64,000 bases of DNA from Rhodobacteraceae bacterium CCMM004 (GTDB lineage: Bacteria > Pseudomonadota > Alphaproteobacteria > Rhodobacterales > Rhodobacteraceae), in the NCBI GenBank assembly GCA_004005435.1, contig RZWH01000002.1, positions 682,001-746,000 on the forward strand, written 5' to 3'. The first letter of the stretch is position 1; every line of letters begins with the position of its first letter. The notes under the pieces are model-generated. The model saw nothing but the letters and a program-made list of their open reading frames with translations, had not been told where the DNA came from and ran no database searches. The position numbers and the translations under genes were made by a program. This document shows, in pieces, positions 881-6,370 of the stretch.

Positions 881-1903
881 ATGCCCGACGCGCCGACCGC
901 CACCAAACCCCAGACGCCGCCGCGGTTCAACGTCTTCGTCGTCGGGCAGCGTGGGCGCATCGGCTACGAGGCGGCGCTGTTCGCGGCGTCCCTGCGATTA
1001 AGCGACCCCGACTTCGCCGGCCGCCTGATCGTGGGCGAGCCCCAGCCCGGTCCGCTCTGGCCCGAGGATCCGCGGATCGCCAACGCCGATCTGCGCAGCC
1101 TCCTGACCGACGAGTTCGGCGCCGAGATCGTGCCGTTCGAGAGCCGCGACTTCGGCGCCGCCTATCCCCACGGCAACAAGATCGAGGGGCTGGAGGCGCT
1201 GCCCGAGGGCGAGCCGTTCGTGTTCTTCGACAGCGACACGCTGATCACCGGGGCGCTGAGCGCGGTGCCCTTCGACTTCGACCGCCCCTCGGCCTCTCTG
1301 CGGCGCGAGGGCACCTGGCCGACCATCGAGCTCTACGGGCCGGGCTATGCCACGATCTGGAAGAGCCTCTACGACAAGTTCGGCCTGGACTTCGCCACTT
1401 CGCTCGACATGACCGAGCCCGAGAAGGTGTGGCGGCGGTATCTCTACTTCAACGCCGGGTGGTTCTTCTATCGCTGTCCGCGGGTCTTCGGCGCGCGGTT
1501 CCGCGCCTACGCCACCGCGATCCGCGACGACCCGCCCGAGGCGCTCTGGGGGCAGTCGCTGACGCCGTGGCTGGATCAGGTGGCGCTGCCTTTGGTGATC
1601 CATGCGTTGGGCGGGGGGCGGCAGACGCTCCCGCCGGACCTGTTGGATGGGACGGTGAGCTGCCATTGGCGGCTGATGCCGCTGCTCTACGCGCGCGAGA
1701 GCGACCGGGCGGTCGAGGTGCTGGAGACGCTGTTTGCCCGCAACCGGATCAAACGGGTGCTCAAGGCGCACCGCCCGATGCAGAAGTTCGTGTTGCAGGG
1801 CGCGGGGGCGCAGGCCCGGGCGCTGTTCGACCGCGCCGCGCTCCCCCGCAAGGAACAGGCGATCCGCAATCGCCTCCGCCGCGAAGGGCTGTGGATGCGG
1901 TAG
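881..1903 (+). CDS. GT-A-like glycosyltransferase-fold protein, function unknown
   Basis: 340 aa, cytosolic by composition. The N-terminal NVFVVGQRGRIGYEAALFAASL segment looks like the first beta-alpha unit of a nucleotide-sugar transferase fold. FVFFDSDTL at about residues 108-116 resembles a DxD metal/nucleotide-sugar motif. The middle carries an aromatic-rich NAGWFFYRCP stretch and a WLDQVALPL helix. The GT-A reading is inference from the DSD motif and flanking strands; a donor sugar cannot be named. It stands alone, and its 3' end faces the repeat array that separates it from folA. Confidence 0.7.
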   Translation: MPDAPTATKPQTPPRFNVFVVGQRGRIGYEAALFAASLRLSDPDFAGRLIVGEPQPGPLWPEDPRIANADLRSLLTDEFGAEIVPFESRDFGAAYPHGNKIEGLEALPEGEPFVFFDSDTLITGALSAVPFDFDRPSASLRREGTWPTIELYGPGYATIWKSLYDKFGLDFATSLDMTEPEKVWRRYLYFNAGWFFYRCPRVFGARFRAYATAIRDDPPEALWGQSLTPWLDQVALPLVIHALGGGRQTLPPDLLDGTVSCHWRLMPLLYARESDRAVEVLETLFARNRIKRVLKAHRPMQKFVLQGAGAQARALFDRAALPRKEQAIRNRLRREGLWMR

Positions 1904-1935
1904 GCGGGGTCCTGCGCGCATCCGTGCTCCGCGCG

Positions 1936-2076
1936 GGGGCGGCGCCGTCTCGCCGGGGCGCGGTCGAGCGGCGCGGGGCGGTGATGGAAGCATCGACGTC
2001 GCGGCGGCCGCACCGTCCTCGCCAAAGCGCCGCCCCGGGGGGGGCGGGACGGCGCTGCCCGGCGTATCCGCCGGGC
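1936..2076. repeat. GC-rich inverted-end repeat element, copy 1
   Basis: First and most diverged of three copies between two convergent genes. Its left end reads GGCGCCGTCTCGCCGGGG instead of the GGGCAGCGCCGTCCCGCC seen elsewhere. The right end GGCGGGACGGCGCTGCCC (2043-2060) is intact and is followed by a hairpin GCCCGGCG-TATC-CGCCGGGC. The interior carries the AAGCATCGACG core shared by the family. Confidence 0.75.
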
Positions 2077-2143
2077 GGGACGGGGAGGCTGGGACGATGA
2101 CATGAAGACCAGATCGCCGCCACCGTTGCCGCACCCGCGCAGA

Positions 2144-2290
2144 GGGCAGCGCCGTCCCGCCGGGGTGGCTGGAGCGGCGCGCGGTGGTCCCAAAAGCATC
2201 GACGCGCCGGCTGCCGCACCTCCCTCGCCAAAAGCGCCGCCCCGGGGGGGCGGGCGGGACGGCGCTGCCCGGCGTGGCCGCCGGGCGGGG
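2144..2290. repeat. GC-rich inverted-end repeat element, copy 2
   Basis: Left end GGGCAGCGCCGTCCCGCC starts at 2144; its exact reverse complement ends near 2270, giving an 18-bp perfect inverted repeat around about 90 bases. The interior shows the AAGCATCGACG core and the CTCGCCAAAAGCGCCGCC block. The right arm runs into hairpin GCCCGGCG-TGGC-CGCCGGGC. It lies about 208 bases from copy 1 and 218 from copy 3. Confidence 0.85.
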
Positions 2291-2361
2291 CATGGAGGCG
2301 AAGCGCAGCGCTTAGATGGCTACGACTACGGCTCGCCCTCAACGCCCAAGCGCAGAGCGGA

Positions 2362-2505
2362 GGGCAGCGCCGTCCCGCCGGGGCTCGGTCGTGCGGCGCG
2401 CGGTAGAGACACAAGCATCGGCGTTCCGGCGGCCGCACCGCCTTCGCCAAAGCGCCGCCCCGGGGGGGCGGGACGGCGCTGCCCGGCGGTGCCCGCCGGG
2501 CGGGG
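2362..2505. repeat. GC-rich inverted-end repeat element, copy 3
   Basis: Same architecture as copy 2, ending 21 bases before the folA stop. The distal hairpin here has stem GCCCGGCGG paired with CCGCCGGGC around a TGC loop. The stem is one pair longer than in copy 2 although the loop sequence differs, so structure rather than sequence seems kept. Confidence 0.85.
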
Positions 2506-2526
2506 CGTGGGGGCTGGCGGGGCGCC

Positions 2527-3036
2527 CTACCCGCCGCCGGGCACCGCGGGCGGCGCGGACCGCAGCCATTCGGTGAGCACGCAGCGGGGGCCATCGGCGC
2601 GCAGGACGGCCCCGCCCGCGCGGCGCCACTGGTTCCACGCCACGGGCGGGAAGAACGTGTCGGCCCCCGGCACGTCCACCTCCACCTCGGTCAACAGGAG
2701 CCGGTCCGCGCGGTTCATCAGTGCGGCATAGACCCCGGCCCCGCCCGCGCCGTAGACCCGCCGGTGTGGCACCGCCTCGGCATGGGCCACCGCGGCGTCG
2801 ACGTCGGCAAAGACGTGCTCGGCCAGCCCCGTCTCCCGCGACACCACCAGGTTCAGCCGCCCCGGCAGCGGCTGCGCACGTTCCGGCAGGCTCTCCCACG
2901 TGCGCCGCCCCATGATCACCGCGCCGCCGCGGGTCTCGCGCTGGAAAAACGCCAGATCCTCGGGCGCGTGCCAGGGGATCGTGCCGTCCCGGCCGATGGC
3001 GCCGTCGCGGGCGCAGGCGGCGATCAGGGTCAGCAC
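2527..3036 (-). CDS. folA: Dihydrofolate reductase
   Basis: 169 aa, usual length for bacterial FolA. It reduces dihydrofolate to tetrahydrofolate with NADPH in the cytosol, recycling the folate oxidised by thymidylate synthase. Visible motifs are GAIGRDGTIPWH (residues 12-23, Met20-loop region), catalytic-type acid D27 in PEDLAFF, MGRRTWESLP (42-51) and the NADPH-binding VYGAGGAGVY (94-103). The start is GTG at 3034-3036, directly after the thyA stop (TGA then GTG), so the two are translationally coupled. Confidence 0.96.
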   Translation of the reverse strand: MLTLIAACARDGAIGRDGTIPWHAPEDLAFFQRETRGGAVIMGRRTWESLPERAQPLPGRLNLVVSRETGLAEHVFADVDAAVAHAEAVPHRRVYGAGGAGVYAALMNRADRLLLTEVEVDVPGADTFFPPVAWNQWRRAGGAVLRADGPRCVLTEWLRSAPPAVPGGG

Positions 3037-3855
3037 TCAGACGGCCACGGGCGCGCGGATCGCAGGATGCGGGTCGTAGCCGTCGAAGGCGAAATCCTCG
3101 AACCGGAAGTCGAAGATCGATCCCACCTCGCGGGTCAGCCGCAGCCGCGGCAGAGGACGCGGATCGCGGGCCAGAAGCGTCTCGACCTGGTCCATGTGGT
3201 TGGCGTAGATATGCGCGTCGCCGATGGCGTGGACGAAGTCGCCGGGCTCGTATCCCGTCACATGGGCCAGCATGTGCAGGAGCAGCGCGTAGGATGCGAT
3301 GTTGAACGGCACGCCCAGGAACATGTCCGCCGACCGCTGGTAGAGTTGCAGATTAAGCCGCCCGTCCAGGACCCGGACTTGCCAGAGCGTGTGGCAGGGC
3401 GGCAGCGCCATCGCGTCAACCTCGCCAGGATTCCAGGCCGACACGATCAAGCGGCGGCTGTCGGGGGTGGCGGCGATGGCCTCGACCAGCCGCGCGATCT
3501 GATCCACCGCGCCCGCCACGATCTGCCCGTCCGGCCCCCTCTCGACCGTCGGAAACCGTCTCCACTGCGCCCCGTAGACCGGGCCCAGCTCGCCCTCGGC
3601 GTCGGCCCATTCGTCCCAGATGCTGACGCCGTTTTCTTTCAGATAGCGGATGTTGGTGTCGCCGGAGAGAAACCACAAAAGTTCGTGCACGATCGAGCGC
3701 AGGTGCAGTTTCTTGGTGGTCACGAGGGGAAAGCCATCGGCCATGGAATAGCGGCACTGCACCCCGAAATAGGACAGCGTCCCGGTGCCGGTGCGGTCGC
3801 CGGACCGCACGCCCCGCTCCAGAACCGTTCTCAACGCGTCGTGATACTGCTGCAT
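3037..3855 (-). CDS. thyA: Thymidylate synthase
   Basis: 272 aa from MQQYHDAL. It converts dUMP plus 5,10-methylenetetrahydrofolate to dTMP and dihydrofolate. Motifs are DRTGTGT (20-26), SRR at 133-135 for phosphate binding, catalytic Cys154 in LPPCHTLWQ, and the FNIASYALL / GDAHIYANH dUMP-site blocks. An upstream in-frame start exists, but MQQYH matches the family N-terminus. It forms a two-gene operon with folA, which regenerates its folate product. Confidence 0.97.
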
Positions 3856-3968
3856 CGCCTGGGGCCCCTTTTGCCTCACCCTGCCGCAGCCGCCGGGGGG
3901 CCGCAAGCGGACTGTCCCTCGCCGCGCGGGGCGCTATGGTCTGCACCGAAAACACCGAGGAGGCGACG

Positions 3969-4397
3969 ATGGCACTCACCTATCTGCACACCATGGTCCG
4001 GGTTCTGGATCTGGAAAAATCCAAGGCGTTCTACGAGCTGTTGGGCCTGGAAGAGACCCGCCGCAGCGACAACGACAAGGGGCGCTTCACCCTCGTCTTC
4101 ATGTCGCCGCCGGGGCAGGAGAACGCGGCGGTCGAACTGACCTACAACTGGGACGGCGACGAGGGGCTGCCGTCGGACAGCCGCCACTTCGGCCACCTCG
4201 CCTACAGGGTCGATAACATCTACGAGATGTGCCAGCATTTGATGGACAATGGGGTTACGATCAACCGGCCGCCGCGAGACGGGCGCATGGCCTTTGTGCG
4301 GTCGCCGGACAACATCTCGGTCGAGTTGTTGCAGGCGGGGGACGCATTGGAGCCGCAAGAGCCGTGGGCGAGCATGGAAAACACCGGACACTGGTAG
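3969..4397 (+). CDS. gloA: Glyoxalase I (lactoylglutathione lyase)
   Basis: 142 aa VOC-fold protein. It isomerises the methylglyoxal-glutathione hemithioacetal to S-lactoylglutathione in the cytosol. Metal-ligand candidates sit at the expected places: H7 (YLHTMVRVLD), E56 (VELTYNW), H76 (FGHLAYRVD) and E119 (SVELLQ). LELTYN-like and GRMAFVRSPD blocks are typical of GloA. The ATG at 3969 is preceded by GAGGAGGCG. The 3' end overlaps the next gene by 34 bases. Confidence 0.92.
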   Translation: MALTYLHTMVRVLDLEKSKAFYELLGLEETRRSDNDKGRFTLVFMSPPGQENAAVELTYNWDGDEGLPSDSRHFGHLAYRVDNIYEMCQHLMDNGVTINRPPRDGRMAFVRSPDNISVELLQAGDALEPQEPWASMENTGHW

Positions 4398-5068
4398 GAC
4401 CGCTGATCGCGCTCGCCCTGTGGGCGGGCGCGGTCCCGGCCGCGGCGCAATGCCGGCTGGCCCTGGTCCTGGGCATGGACATCTCATCGTCGGTCGATCC
4501 CGACGAGGACCGCCTGCAACGCCAGGGGTTGGCGCGGGCGCTGATGGCGCCGGAGGTGCAGCGCGCGGCCTTCGCCCTGCCCGACTCGCCGGTGGCGCTC
4601 GCGATCTACGAATGGTCGGGGCGCTATCAGCAAAAGCTAATCGTCGACTGGACGATCCTGAACGGGCAGGAGGATCTGGCCCGCGCCGCCCGCGCCGTCG
4701 CCACGTCCGAACGCAGCTATGCCGAGTTTCCCACCGCGCTGGGGTTCGCCATCGGCTATGCCGCCAGTATCTTCGAGCGGGGGCCGCCGTGCCTGTTCAA
4801 GACGCTGGACATCTCGGGCGACGGGTCGAACAACGACGGCTTCGGCCCGGACCGGGCCTACGAGCACTTTCCTCTGGCCGAAGTGACGGTGAACGGTCTG
4901 TCCATCGGCGGCCACGACAAGGAGGTCGCCGACTACTACCGCCGCGAGCTGTTGCGCGGACCGGGCGCGTTTCTGGAGCAGGCGACGGGGTTCGAGGACT
5001 TCGAGCGGGCCATGCGCAAGAAGCTGGAGCGCGAGATGGGCGTGCGGGTGCTGGGCGCGGTGCGGTGA
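4364..5068 (+). CDS. DUF1194 protein, secreted von Willebrand A-like
   Basis: About 234 aa from a GTG at 4364. The N-terminus (GKHR then a hydrophobic run ending AVPAAAQ) is a Sec signal peptide. LALVLGMDISSSVDPDE begins the mature protein and carries a DxSxS metal-ion-dependent adhesion site. ALAIYEWSG and TLDISGDGSNNDG are the other family landmarks. DUF1194 members are periplasmic or extracellular proteins of unknown role. The start is a choice: the signal peptide requires a start inside the 3' end of gloA, implying coupling. Confidence 0.82.
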   Translation: MGEHGKHRTLVGPLIALALWAGAVPAAAQCRLALVLGMDISSSVDPDEDRLQRQGLARALMAPEVQRAAFALPDSPVALAIYEWSGRYQQKLIVDWTILNGQEDLARAARAVATSERSYAEFPTALGFAIGYAASIFERGPPCLFKTLDISGDGSNNDGFGPDRAYEHFPLAEVTVNGLSIGGHDKEVADYYRRELLRGPGAFLEQATGFEDFERAMRKKLEREMGVRVLGAVR

Positions 5069-5166
5069 GGGGCTCGGCGGGACATCCCTCGACGCGCCCG
5101 ACCTCCGGTCCCCGCCTCGGGTAGAGAGACATCCGCCTGTAGCGAAACGCCCTCGCTGGCAAAGAA

Positions 5167-5308
5167 GGGCAGCGCGGTCCCGCCGGGGCGGCGTTGCACG
5201 GGGCGCGACAGTTCCAGAAGCATCCACGCCGCGGCGGCTAAACCACCTTCGCGAAAAGCGCCGCCCCGGGGGGGCGGGACGGCGCTGCCCGGCGTGGCCG
5301 CCGGGCCG
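5167..5308. repeat. GC-rich inverted-end repeat element, copy 4
   Basis: First copy of the second array, between the convergent DUF1194 and ldtR genes. The left end has one change (AGCGCGGTCCC). The interior reads AAGCATCCACG, and the right end GGCGGGACGGCGCTGCCC is intact and followed by the GCCCGGCG-TGGC-CGCCGGGC hairpin. A 70-base spacer containing AAGAACGGCACAATGCCC leads to copy 5. Confidence 0.85.
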
Positions 5309-5380
5309 GACGGGGAGGCTAAGAACGGCACAATGCCCGGATCGGCCTAAACTGCCGCTGGCCTCTCCCCTTCGCGCGGA

Positions 5381-5523
5381 GGGCAGCGCCGTCCCGCCGG
5401 GGCTGGGTCAAGCGGCGCGGGACCGTCCTACAAGCATCCACGCCCCAGCGGCTGCACCGCCTTCGCCAAAAGCGCCGCCCCGGGGGGGCGGGACGGCGCT
5501 GCCCGGCGTGGCCGCCGGGCCGG
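5381..5523. repeat. GC-rich inverted-end repeat element, copy 5
   Basis: Perfect 18-bp ends (GGGCAGCGCCGTCCCGCC and its complement), core AAGCATCCACG, CTTCGCCAAAAGCGCCGCC block and distal TGGC-loop hairpin. The spacer after it is nearly identical to the one after copy 4, so the repeated unit is element plus spacer with a period of 213-214 bases. Confidence 0.88.
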
Positions 5524-5593
5524 ATGGGGAGGCTAAGAACCGCACAATGCCCGGATCGGCCTAAACTGCCGCTGGCGCCTTCTCTTCCCGCGG

Positions 5594-5739
5594 AAGGCTG
5601 CGCCGTCCCGCCGGGGCTGGGTAGAGCGGCGCGGGGCATTGCCGGAAGCATCGACTTCGCAGCGGCCTTACTGCCCTCGCAGAAAGCGCCGCCCCGGGGG
5701 GGCGGGACGGCGGTGCCCGGCGGTGCCCGCCGGGCGGGG
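5594..5739. repeat. GC-rich inverted-end repeat element, copy 6
   Basis: The left end has drifted (AAGGCTGCGCCGTCCCGCC) and the right arm reads GGCGGGACGGCGGTGCCC. The distal hairpin is the GCCCGGCGG-TGC-CCGCCGGGC form, as in copy 3. It ends about 130 bases before the ldtR stop. Bases 5740-5869 show nothing else I recognise. Confidence 0.8.
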
Positions 5740-5869
5740 CGGGATTGCGGGGCGGAGCGCCCGTATCGTCGCCGCTGCGCAGTCGTTTTCCTGGCGAGCG
5801 TTCCAGGACTCCCGCAGAGCTCCCCCATCTGGCCTTCCGGACCGCGCCCGACCCCTCTTCCCATCCCGC

Positions 5870-6370
5870 TCAGTAGATATAGCGGATCTGGTCGGTCCAG
5901 TAGCGCTCCAGCCGTTTCAGCGCCCCGTTCACCCGGTCGAGCGTGTCGGCGTCCAGCACGCCGCGGGACTGGAGCCCCTCGGCGTGACGGGCATAGAGCC
6001 GGTCGACCATCTGGTGGATATGGCGGCCCTGCGCCGTCAGCCGGACCCGCACCGCCCGGCGATCCACCTCGCAGCGCTGGTGGTGCATATATCCCAACTC
6101 CACCAGCTTCTTGAGGTTGTAGGAGACGTTCGAGCCCTGGTAGTAGCCCCGCGATTTCAGCTCGCCCGCCGTGACCTCGTTGTCGCCGATGTTGAACAGC
6201 AGAAGCGCCTGGACCGGGTTGATCTCCAGGATCCCCACACGCTCGAACTCGTCCTTGATGACATCCAGCATCAGCCGATGCAGACGCTCGATCATCGCCA
6301 GACTGTCCAGATACACCGCCATATAGGCGGACCCGGGCATGGTCCGGTCGACCTTTTCCAATACCGTCAT
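5870..6370 (-). CDS. ldtR: MarR-type winged-helix regulator, LdtR-like
   Basis: 166 aa. The pattern AVYLDSLAMIERLHRL...VIKDEFER, then NPVQALLLFNIGDNEVTAGELKSRGYYQGSNVSYNLKKLVELGY, is the LdtR subgroup of MarR regulators known from Rhizobiales, where it controls an L,D-transpeptidase and osmotic tolerance. The winged helix spans about residues 50-125. No L,D-transpeptidase gene is adjacent, so the target is not shown here. Family assignment is firm; the gene symbol is by homology of pattern. Confidence 0.85.
   Translation of the reverse strand: MTVLEKVDRTMPGSAYMAVYLDSLAMIERLHRLMLDVIKDEFERVGILEINPVQALLLFNIGDNEVTAGELKSRGYYQGSNVSYNLKKLVELGYMHHQRCEVDRRAVRVRLTAQGRHIHQMVDRLYARHAEGLQSRGVLDADTLDRVNGALKRLERYWTDQIRYIY

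What the first reader, a model, noticed from the sequence alone, without database searches (positions are those of the whole stretch)
1936..5739. Two tandem arrays of a novel-looking inverted-end element at convergent gene ends
Six copies (three at 1936-2505, three at 5167-5739) share 18-bp ends GGGCAGCGCCGTCCCGCC / complement, an AAGCATC(G/C)ACG core and a CCTTCGCCAAAAGCGCCGCC block, period about 208-218. Both arrays occupy spaces between convergent genes. No coding capacity is convincing. They could be REP/BIME-like or MITE-like elements, bidirectional terminators, or nucleoid-protein or gyrase sites.
Basis: partly seen in the sequence, partly recalled or inferred. Interest (0 to 1): 0.68.

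Follow-up and report, generated by a model that had tools for sequence, protein, structure and literature searches.

The report
Repeated folding DNA behind bacterial genes
The six repeats are copies of a small folding DNA element that has spread to dozens of places between genes in this genome and has shorter cousins across its family of bacteria; it behaves like known jumping palindromes, but no enzyme that would move it was found.

Summary
Six copies of a ~158-bp element stand in two same-orientation arrays (1937-2517, 5166-5741), each between convergent genes. The genome holds at least 85 copies in at least 48 places. Of 44 clusters whose surroundings I read, none overlaps a predicted gene; 20 of 43 are convergent against 16% expected. 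It is a long-loop form of a shorter (~90 bp) two-hairpin element found in 66 of 120 sampled genomes of the same family, with strong covariation. Mobility is supported by a hot spot (cysS-cimA) filled in either orientation or empty, no array at the LdtR site in 16 relatives, and spacers shared between loci. The strand that keeps its pairs through G-U is the element's own plus strand, whichever way the neighbouring gene points, as expected if a single-stranded form is what moves. REP/REPIN is the closest known kind, but no Y1/RAYT gene was found here, GTAG and CGTC tags are absent and arrays are head-to-tail. Best filed as a new REP-like family with unknown mobiliser; a terminator role is not excluded.

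The parts
1937..2093 (+). long-form element, array 1 copy 1
2142..2299 (+). long-form element, array 1 copy 2
   Evidence: also matched by compact-form model R1, E=0.0037
2300..2358 (+). spacer between copies 2 and 3, similar to the spacer of an array at C11:267 kb in the same genome
2359..2517 (+). long-form element, array 1 copy 3
   Evidence: model R1 E=0.0053
5166..5320 (+). long-form element, array 2 copy 1
5378..5534 (+). long-form element, array 2 copy 2
   Evidence: matched by compact-form model R1, built without any copy of this genome, E=4.4e-5
5592..5741 (+). long-form element, array 2 copy 3
   Evidence: model R1 E=0.052
881..1903 (+). left neighbour of array 1: 340-aa ORF, no Pfam or NCBIfam match
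2527..3036 (-). right neighbour of array 1: dihydrofolate reductase folA
4364..5068 (+). left neighbour of array 2: DUF1194 protein
5870..6370 (-). right neighbour of array 2: LdtR-like MarR regulator (below the NCBIfam cut-off for LdtR)

Best explanation
The repeats are a long-loop, tandemly amplified member of a Rhodobacteraceae-wide family of small non-autonomous dispersed elements that work like REP/REPIN elements. Shown: a conserved two-hairpin fold; many extragenic copies; positions that differ between related genomes, in either orientation; in this genome a bias to the space behind gene 3' ends; direct tandem duplication of some units and sharing of spacers between arrays at different loci. 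Inferred: the element is moved in a single-stranded form whose plus strand must fold (single-stranded DNA more likely than RNA), by an enzyme that is not a Y1/RAYT transposase of this genome; inserted copies survive where they harm least, behind genes; arrays grow by slippage or unequal recombination and are copied between loci by transposition or gene conversion. Any present use, such as a 3' mRNA stabiliser, would be secondary.
For: At least 85 long copies in 48 places (79 in 44 clusters; 6 more in 4 places seen only). 0 of 44 clusters overlap a predicted gene, 20 of 43 convergent, 16 of 18 tandem-gap clusters nearer the upstream gene's stop, 10 sense and 8 antisense, 0 of 26 arrays of mixed orientation. 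Compact cousins in 66 of 120 family genomes, this one included. Covariation on 102 matches (100 distinct): 24 of 31 pairs with double changes, 94.8% of cells paired against 81.5% shuffled and at most 45.2% with slid partners. The model built only from other genera finds four of the window's six long copies at E below 0.1. cysS-cimA gap: element in 10 of 26 genera with cysS called next to cimA, 4 sense, 5 antisense, 1 with one of each; 16 without, of which 3 have overlapping genes (gene names). LdtR site: no match in 16 family relatives within 1.5 kb; of the two with a DUF1194-like gene called next to LdtR, one overlaps it and one has a 167-bp gap. Spacers alike between loci in 3 pairs of arrays, two clear and one just above the best of 4000 shuffles. 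G-U against A-C on the plus strand: 14:2 in stem 1 of 15 BLAST-found copies; stem 1 22:5 in antisense and 20:7 in sense copies; 24:9 in long copies aligned by sequence only.
Against: No mobilising enzyme identified; no target-site duplication signal (44 clusters); no filled/empty pair at base level: the one within-genus case (Phaeobacter rfbB-rfbD) looks like internal deletion of the hairpin, not clean excision. One of five Oceanicola loci with the long form has a right-hand neighbour (ABC transporter ATPase, 51% identical) like that of the G000 array at C16:549 kb, in the same convergent arrangement; the other neighbours differ and this protein family is large, but an inherited site is not excluded. 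All six copies found by sucD/sucA are sense, so some sites may be kept or inherited. In the compact set only 34 of 62 tandem-gap copies lie nearer the upstream stop and 3 of 97 lie inside a predicted gene. Covariation was counted on an alignment fitted to the structure, and quasi-palindrome correction (recalled) can mimic it. G-U counts are not independent across relatives and the covariance model favours G-U; in the 8 long copies at divergent gaps the ratio is reversed (2:4). Gene conversion between arrays could explain shared spacers.
Confidence: 0.7

Rival explanations
1. Bidirectional transcription terminator or 3'-end mRNA stabiliser selected at the ends of genes; copies spread because they are useful there.
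For: Strong hairpins on both strands; convergent and 3'-end bias; positions inside operons such as rfbB-rfbD, paaC-paaD and sucD-sucA. The terminator scan of 1850-5900 gave 6 sites against 2.2 (sd 1.7) by chance, 3 of them touching copies on the minus strand.
Against: The consensus has at most 4 T in the 8 bases after the local minus-strand hairpin and no T-run after the plus-strand stem. Structural constraint follows the element's plus strand, not the strand transcribed with the neighbour. The same distribution is reported for REPs (PMC3733652 section 15) and is also what selection against harmful insertions would give. At cysS-cimA the element is absent in 16 of 26 genera.
Confidence: 0.17
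2. A multi-copy small RNA gene family in tandem arrays, each copy transcribed from its own promoter.
For: Plus-strand fold is the conserved one; arrays are of one orientation.
Against: No Rfam match at gathering level; no sigma-70-type promoter in 1850-5900 (0 found, 0.2 expected; other promoter types not covered); spacers and 5' flanks mostly unlike between loci.
Confidence: 0.07
3. Sites for a DNA-binding protein (gyrase, nucleoid or chromosome-organising protein) acting on double-stranded DNA.
For: Copy number, extragenic position and lack of bias to gene strand would fit; REPs and BIMEs are described as binding sites for several proteins (abstract start of PMC2817692 in a search listing).
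Against: Double-stranded binding does not predict plus-strand-only wobble pairing or compensatory changes at many pairs.
Confidence: 0.06

Closest known systems
REPINs / REP doublets with RAYT (Pseudomonas, E. coli)
   Same: Extragenic palindromic elements forming long hairpins, many copies, some clusters as tandem repeats with flanking sequence (PMC3116915, passages); strand-specific recognition of the folded single strand by the transposase (PMC8266576, passages)
   Different: No Y1/RAYT gene found in this genome and no association seen in the family; no GTAG; one asymmetric two-hairpin unit rather than two inverted REPs; long-form arrays head-to-tail only
CGTC-tagged REPs, mostly of Alphaproteobacteria
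   Same: Alphaproteobacterial palindromic repeats, apparently without a dedicated transposase, bias to gene 3' ends and convergent gaps (PMC3733652, abstract and sections 6 and 15)
   Different: Those have 8-9 bp stems, 4-5 nt loops, a terminal CGTC-type tag, mostly a CCA tail and head-to-head dimers; here stem 1 is 17-18 bp with an inner hairpin or a long loop, no such tag, and no mixed-orientation long-form cluster among 44. The paper's text names no Rhodobacter, Roseobacter, Paracoccus or Ruegeria; its figures and supplements were not seen
MITEs
   Same: Small, non-coding, inverted arms, dispersed
   Different: Arms are not the outer ends (about 32 bp follow the 3' arm), no target-site duplication signal, no partner transposon found

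Membership tests
REP/REPIN (RAYT-mobilised) | Cognate Y1_Tnp/RAYT gene in the genome | tested here: not met
   PF01797: 0 matches in G000; the same search rings in 5 of 14 control genomes
REP/REPIN (RAYT-mobilised) | GTAG-type tetranucleotide at the hairpin foot | tested here: not met
   Compact consensus reads AAGGGC, long consensus GGAGGGC, at the 5' foot of the stem
REP/REPIN (RAYT-mobilised) | High-copy extragenic palindromes, gene-3'-end bias | tested here: met
   for the long form; the 3'-end bias is not clear for compact copies in tandem gaps (34 of 62)
REP/REPIN (RAYT-mobilised) | Inverted REP doublets as the unit | tested here: not met
   0 of 44 long-form clusters have mixed orientation; one inverted compact pair seen at cysS-cimA
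CGTC REP | CGTC-type unpaired end tag, 8-9 bp stem, CCA tail | tested here: not met
   Consensus against the description read
MITE | Terminal inverted repeats at the outer ends | tested here: not met
   conserved tail beyond the 3' arm
MITE | Target-site duplication | tested here: not met
   mean longest shared flank word 5.43 versus 5.59 in shuffled pairing, 44 clusters; element borders are fuzzy
Intrinsic terminator | Hairpin followed directly by a U-rich tract | tested here: inconclusive
   6 sites in 1850-5900 against 2.2 by chance, 3 touching copies, but the scan allows loops of 3-8 only and cannot see the long-loop stem; consensus tail has at most 4 T in 8
Known structured RNA | Match to an Rfam 15 family | tested here: not met
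   the only hit on a copy is a 20-base CRISPR-DR9 match at 2267-2286, 18.4 bits against a gathering score of 45, E=2.2
Single-strand-moved element | Movement through folded single-stranded DNA | not testable with these tools
   only indirect: plus-strand G-U bias independent of gene direction

The most novel reading that the evidence does not exclude
A family-wide class of mobile palindromes in Rhodobacteraceae that moves through a strand-specific folded single strand with an enzyme other than a Y1/RAYT transposase, active recently enough in this lineage to have made a long-loop form that spreads as whole tandem blocks.
Probability: 0.3. Interest if true: 0.72.

Novelty: new variant of a known kind. 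Interest (0 to 1): 0.5.

Why it matters
CGTC REPs, the main alphaproteobacterial kind, apparently lack a dedicated transposase (PMC3733652 abstract). This family poses the same question in culturable marine bacteria: plasmids of Phaeobacter, Leisingera and Ruegeria sp. TM1040 carry it. It has a hot spot with filled and empty states and a strand-specific structural signature, so the question of what moves RAYT-less palindromes becomes testable.

Tried and rejected
RAYT partner: PF01797 in G000 and in 120 family genomes, not found or not associated. Autonomous copy flanked by element ends: a lone 5' half at C16:203149 beside a gene was looked at; the gene's 646-aa protein has no NCBIfam match at 1e-20 and reads to me as a secreted phosphoesterase, not a transposase; dropped. 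Coding: unlikely. Terminator: not shown, left open. Host-mRNA-level selection of the fold: predicted the opposite wobble bias in antisense copies; not seen. Target-site duplications: no signal. folA locus as empty-site test for array 1: uninformative, 1 of 18 other family relatives has a folA match and its neighbours differ. Congeners of an element-rich genome for empty sites: the genus search returned that one genome only. Phaeobacter rfbB-rfbD as empty-site test: strain P10 and a Leisingera copy look like internal hairpin deletion, not excision. A 50-kb stretch of a Leisingera plasmid was fetched and not used further. An early script set the element's orientation by a short word that also occurs in the other arm; orientations were redone from the covariance-model strand. 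Pattern scan of genome contigs: 5 of 10 hits (two Streptomyces, a Caulobacteraceae MAG, a Methylobacterium, a Clostridia MAG) match the profile over at most 44 positions and look like chance. Literature: the listings showed no paper on this family; the library holds open-licence papers only.

Limits of counts: each genome search scores only part of its candidates, so copy numbers and 66 of 120 are lower bounds. Clusters were first found with a window copy as query, which favours close relatives; weak or partial profile hits were dropped before the context test (44 of 51 clusters kept, score 45 or more over 105 or more positions), and of the 44 one at a stretch edge was left out (43 used). The spacer test used the spacers of 45-75 bases (31 of 35, as 465 pairs). 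The 30 cysS-cimA loci are those best matching one query protein among 77 genomes with a match; 4 of the 30 were dropped for lack of a called cysS, one of which (L232) has an element upstream of cimA; L243's genes also overlap if the start is taken from the protein match. Compact contexts are 97 best-scoring matches, some at the same site in different genera. Genes were called by my own codon-usage script, not a standard annotator. lepA and sucA beside other loci are named from my reading or by similarity to L011.

Full report
What is there. Six copies of one element stand in two arrays, 1937-2517 and 5166-5741, all on the plus strand, steps 205-218. The consensus of 69 full copies has 160 columns: a GGAG lead, an 18-bp arm GGGCAGCGCCGTCCCGCC, an ~88-base middle that varies but keeps the words AAGC and AAAAGCGCCGCCCC, the other arm GGCGGGACGGCGCTGCCC, a second hairpin GGCG-CGCC and a G-rich tail. 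Both arrays fill gaps between convergent genes.

Genome-wide. Three searches with different queries and a profile run over fetched stretches give at least 79 copies of 105 or more profile positions in 44 clusters, 18 with one such copy and 26 arrays of two to four with median step 215, plus 6 copies in 4 places known only. No cluster overlaps a gene called by my script. Against a sample of 464 kb (the window and 20 hand-placed stretches), 20 of 43 clusters are convergent where 15.8% of intergenic bases are (p=2e-6; 13.5% of gaps, 9.6% of gaps of 60 bp or more). In gaps between genes of one direction 16 of 18 clusters lie nearer the upstream gene's stop; 10 are sense and 8 antisense.

The wider family. 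BLAST of a window copy against 40 relatives found only the 3' half, in 13 of the 24 other family genomes, and nothing in 16 from outside the family. Reading those places showed a compact element of about 90 bases: the same arm, a 10-bp inner hairpin in place of the long middle, the same second arm and second hairpin. A covariance model from 15 such copies matches 66 of 120 genomes of the family and 3 of 190 drawn from the class, all three of this family. G000 itself also has compact copies (12 at E 1.2e-4 or better among 27 matches listed, one of which is a long copy). The model, made without any copy of G000, finds four of the window's six copies at E below 0.1, so the two forms are related. 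The long form also occurs in Oceanicola granulosus HTCC2516: six near-full copies at five loci, two of them in tandem. Among plasmids, 68 records match the compact form: Phaeobacter 35, Leisingera 27, Tritonibacter 2, one each of Ruegeria, Sulfitobacter, Pseudosulfitobacter, and one Sinorhizobium, outside the family.

Context of compact copies. Of 97 matches 34 are antisense and 28 sense in tandem gaps, 23 convergent, 7 divergent, 3 inside a predicted gene and 2 at an edge; in tandem gaps 34 of 62 lie nearer the upstream stop. So the lack of gene-strand bias holds for both forms, but the strong 3'-end bias is shown for the long form only.

Structure. On 102 compact matches (100 distinct) 24 of 31 pairs show changes on both sides, 311 cells, against 75 in shuffles and at most 41 with slid partners; the alignment was fitted to the model, which favours this. 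On the 15 copies found by BLAST alone the trend is the same (15 double-change cells against 4.3 shuffled). In the long form the arms hardly vary, but one pair of hairpin 2 is swapped from G-C to C-G in 6 of 69 copies.

Which strand folds. Pairs kept by G-U on the plus strand outnumber A-C (which would be G-U on the minus strand) 14:2 in stem 1 of the 15 BLAST-found copies, 214:24 over all pairs of the 100 distinct matches and 24:9 in long copies aligned by sequence only. In stem 1 the bias is alike whether the element is sense (20:7) or antisense (22:5) to its neighbours. In long copies two kinds of change in the 5' arm make it, C to U (12) and A to G (10), so it is not simply cytosine deamination. 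Long copies at divergent gaps go the other way (2:4, 8 copies). I read this as constraint on a single-stranded form of the element itself, not on the mRNA of its host gene.

Mobility. At cysS-cimA (names), 26 of 30 fetched loci have cysS called next to cimA; 10 of the 26 hold the element (4 sense, 5 antisense, and the window's own genome with one of each), 13 have a gap without it and 3 have overlapping genes. At LdtR, 16 family relatives show no element within the 1.5 kb held; two have a DUF1194-like gene called next to LdtR, one overlapping and one 167 bp away. Of the five Oceanicola loci, four share no adjacent neighbour with the 44 G000 clusters compared; the fifth (L118) has an ABC-transporter ATPase on its right, 51% identical to the right-hand neighbour of the array at C16:549 kb and in the same arrangement, with the other neighbours different; this could be chance in a large protein family or an inherited site. 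Spacers are alike within an array in 3 of 9 pairs (tandem duplication) and between arrays at different loci in 3 pairs, two clear and one marginal; one of the clear ones links the window's copies 2-3 with C11:267 kb. Copies in arrays resemble a copy elsewhere best in 46 of 61 cases. Against simple jumping: no target-site duplication signal, sucD/sucA copies all sense (6 of 6), and repeated use of neighbours such as lepA could be inheritance.

Mechanism offered. A REP-like non-autonomous element moved in a folded single-stranded form. Steps shown: fold, dispersal, position bias, array growth. Steps inferred: single-stranded DNA intermediate, the unknown enzyme, and selection against harmful sites as the cause of the gene-end bias. 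That bias alone cannot separate this from use as a 3'-end hairpin; the strand test argues against that as the main constraint, and the terminator scan leaves it open.

Known kinds. The distribution matches that reported for REPs (PMC3733652 section 15), and tandem clusters with flanks are reported for REPINs (PMC3116915, passages). Defining features of RAYT-linked REPs (Y1 gene, GTAG) and of CGTC REPs (tag, short stem, CCA tail) were tested and not met. Hence: works like a REP, not filed as a member of those families. Passages of PMC12306157, PMC8266576, PMC4809877 and PMC5107571 were seen, and term counts of zero in PMC2267715; none describes it in what I saw.

Noticed in passing
window 2527-3906: The genome has folA next to thymidylate synthase thyA; a folA match was found in only 1 of 18 other family relatives searched, so most of them may make thymidylate another way.
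   Followed up: partly
L234 2968-3274 (G000:C16 near 588.1 kb): The window's genome carries two compact elements in opposite orientation between cysS and cimA, a gap filled in 10 of 26 genera.
   Followed up: partly
L266 2569-2754 and L267 2609-3082: In Phaeobacter inhibens P66 a short hypothetical protein is annotated starting inside the element's second hairpin, where strain 2.10 has a metal-dependent hydrolase gene; it may be a gene remnant.
   Followed up: no
L087, L108, L131, L133, L135, L148, L164, L170: In eight genera the compact element lies about 0.7-1.5 kb from the 3' end of what I read as lepA.
   Followed up: no
L091, L102, L107, L116, L154, L175: Copies by sucD or sucA in six genera are all in the sense direction, unlike at cysS-cimA.
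   Followed up: partly
L274 1374-1438: A Leisingera plasmid keeps only the foot of the element between rfbB and rfbD, as if the hairpin had been deleted.
   Followed up: no
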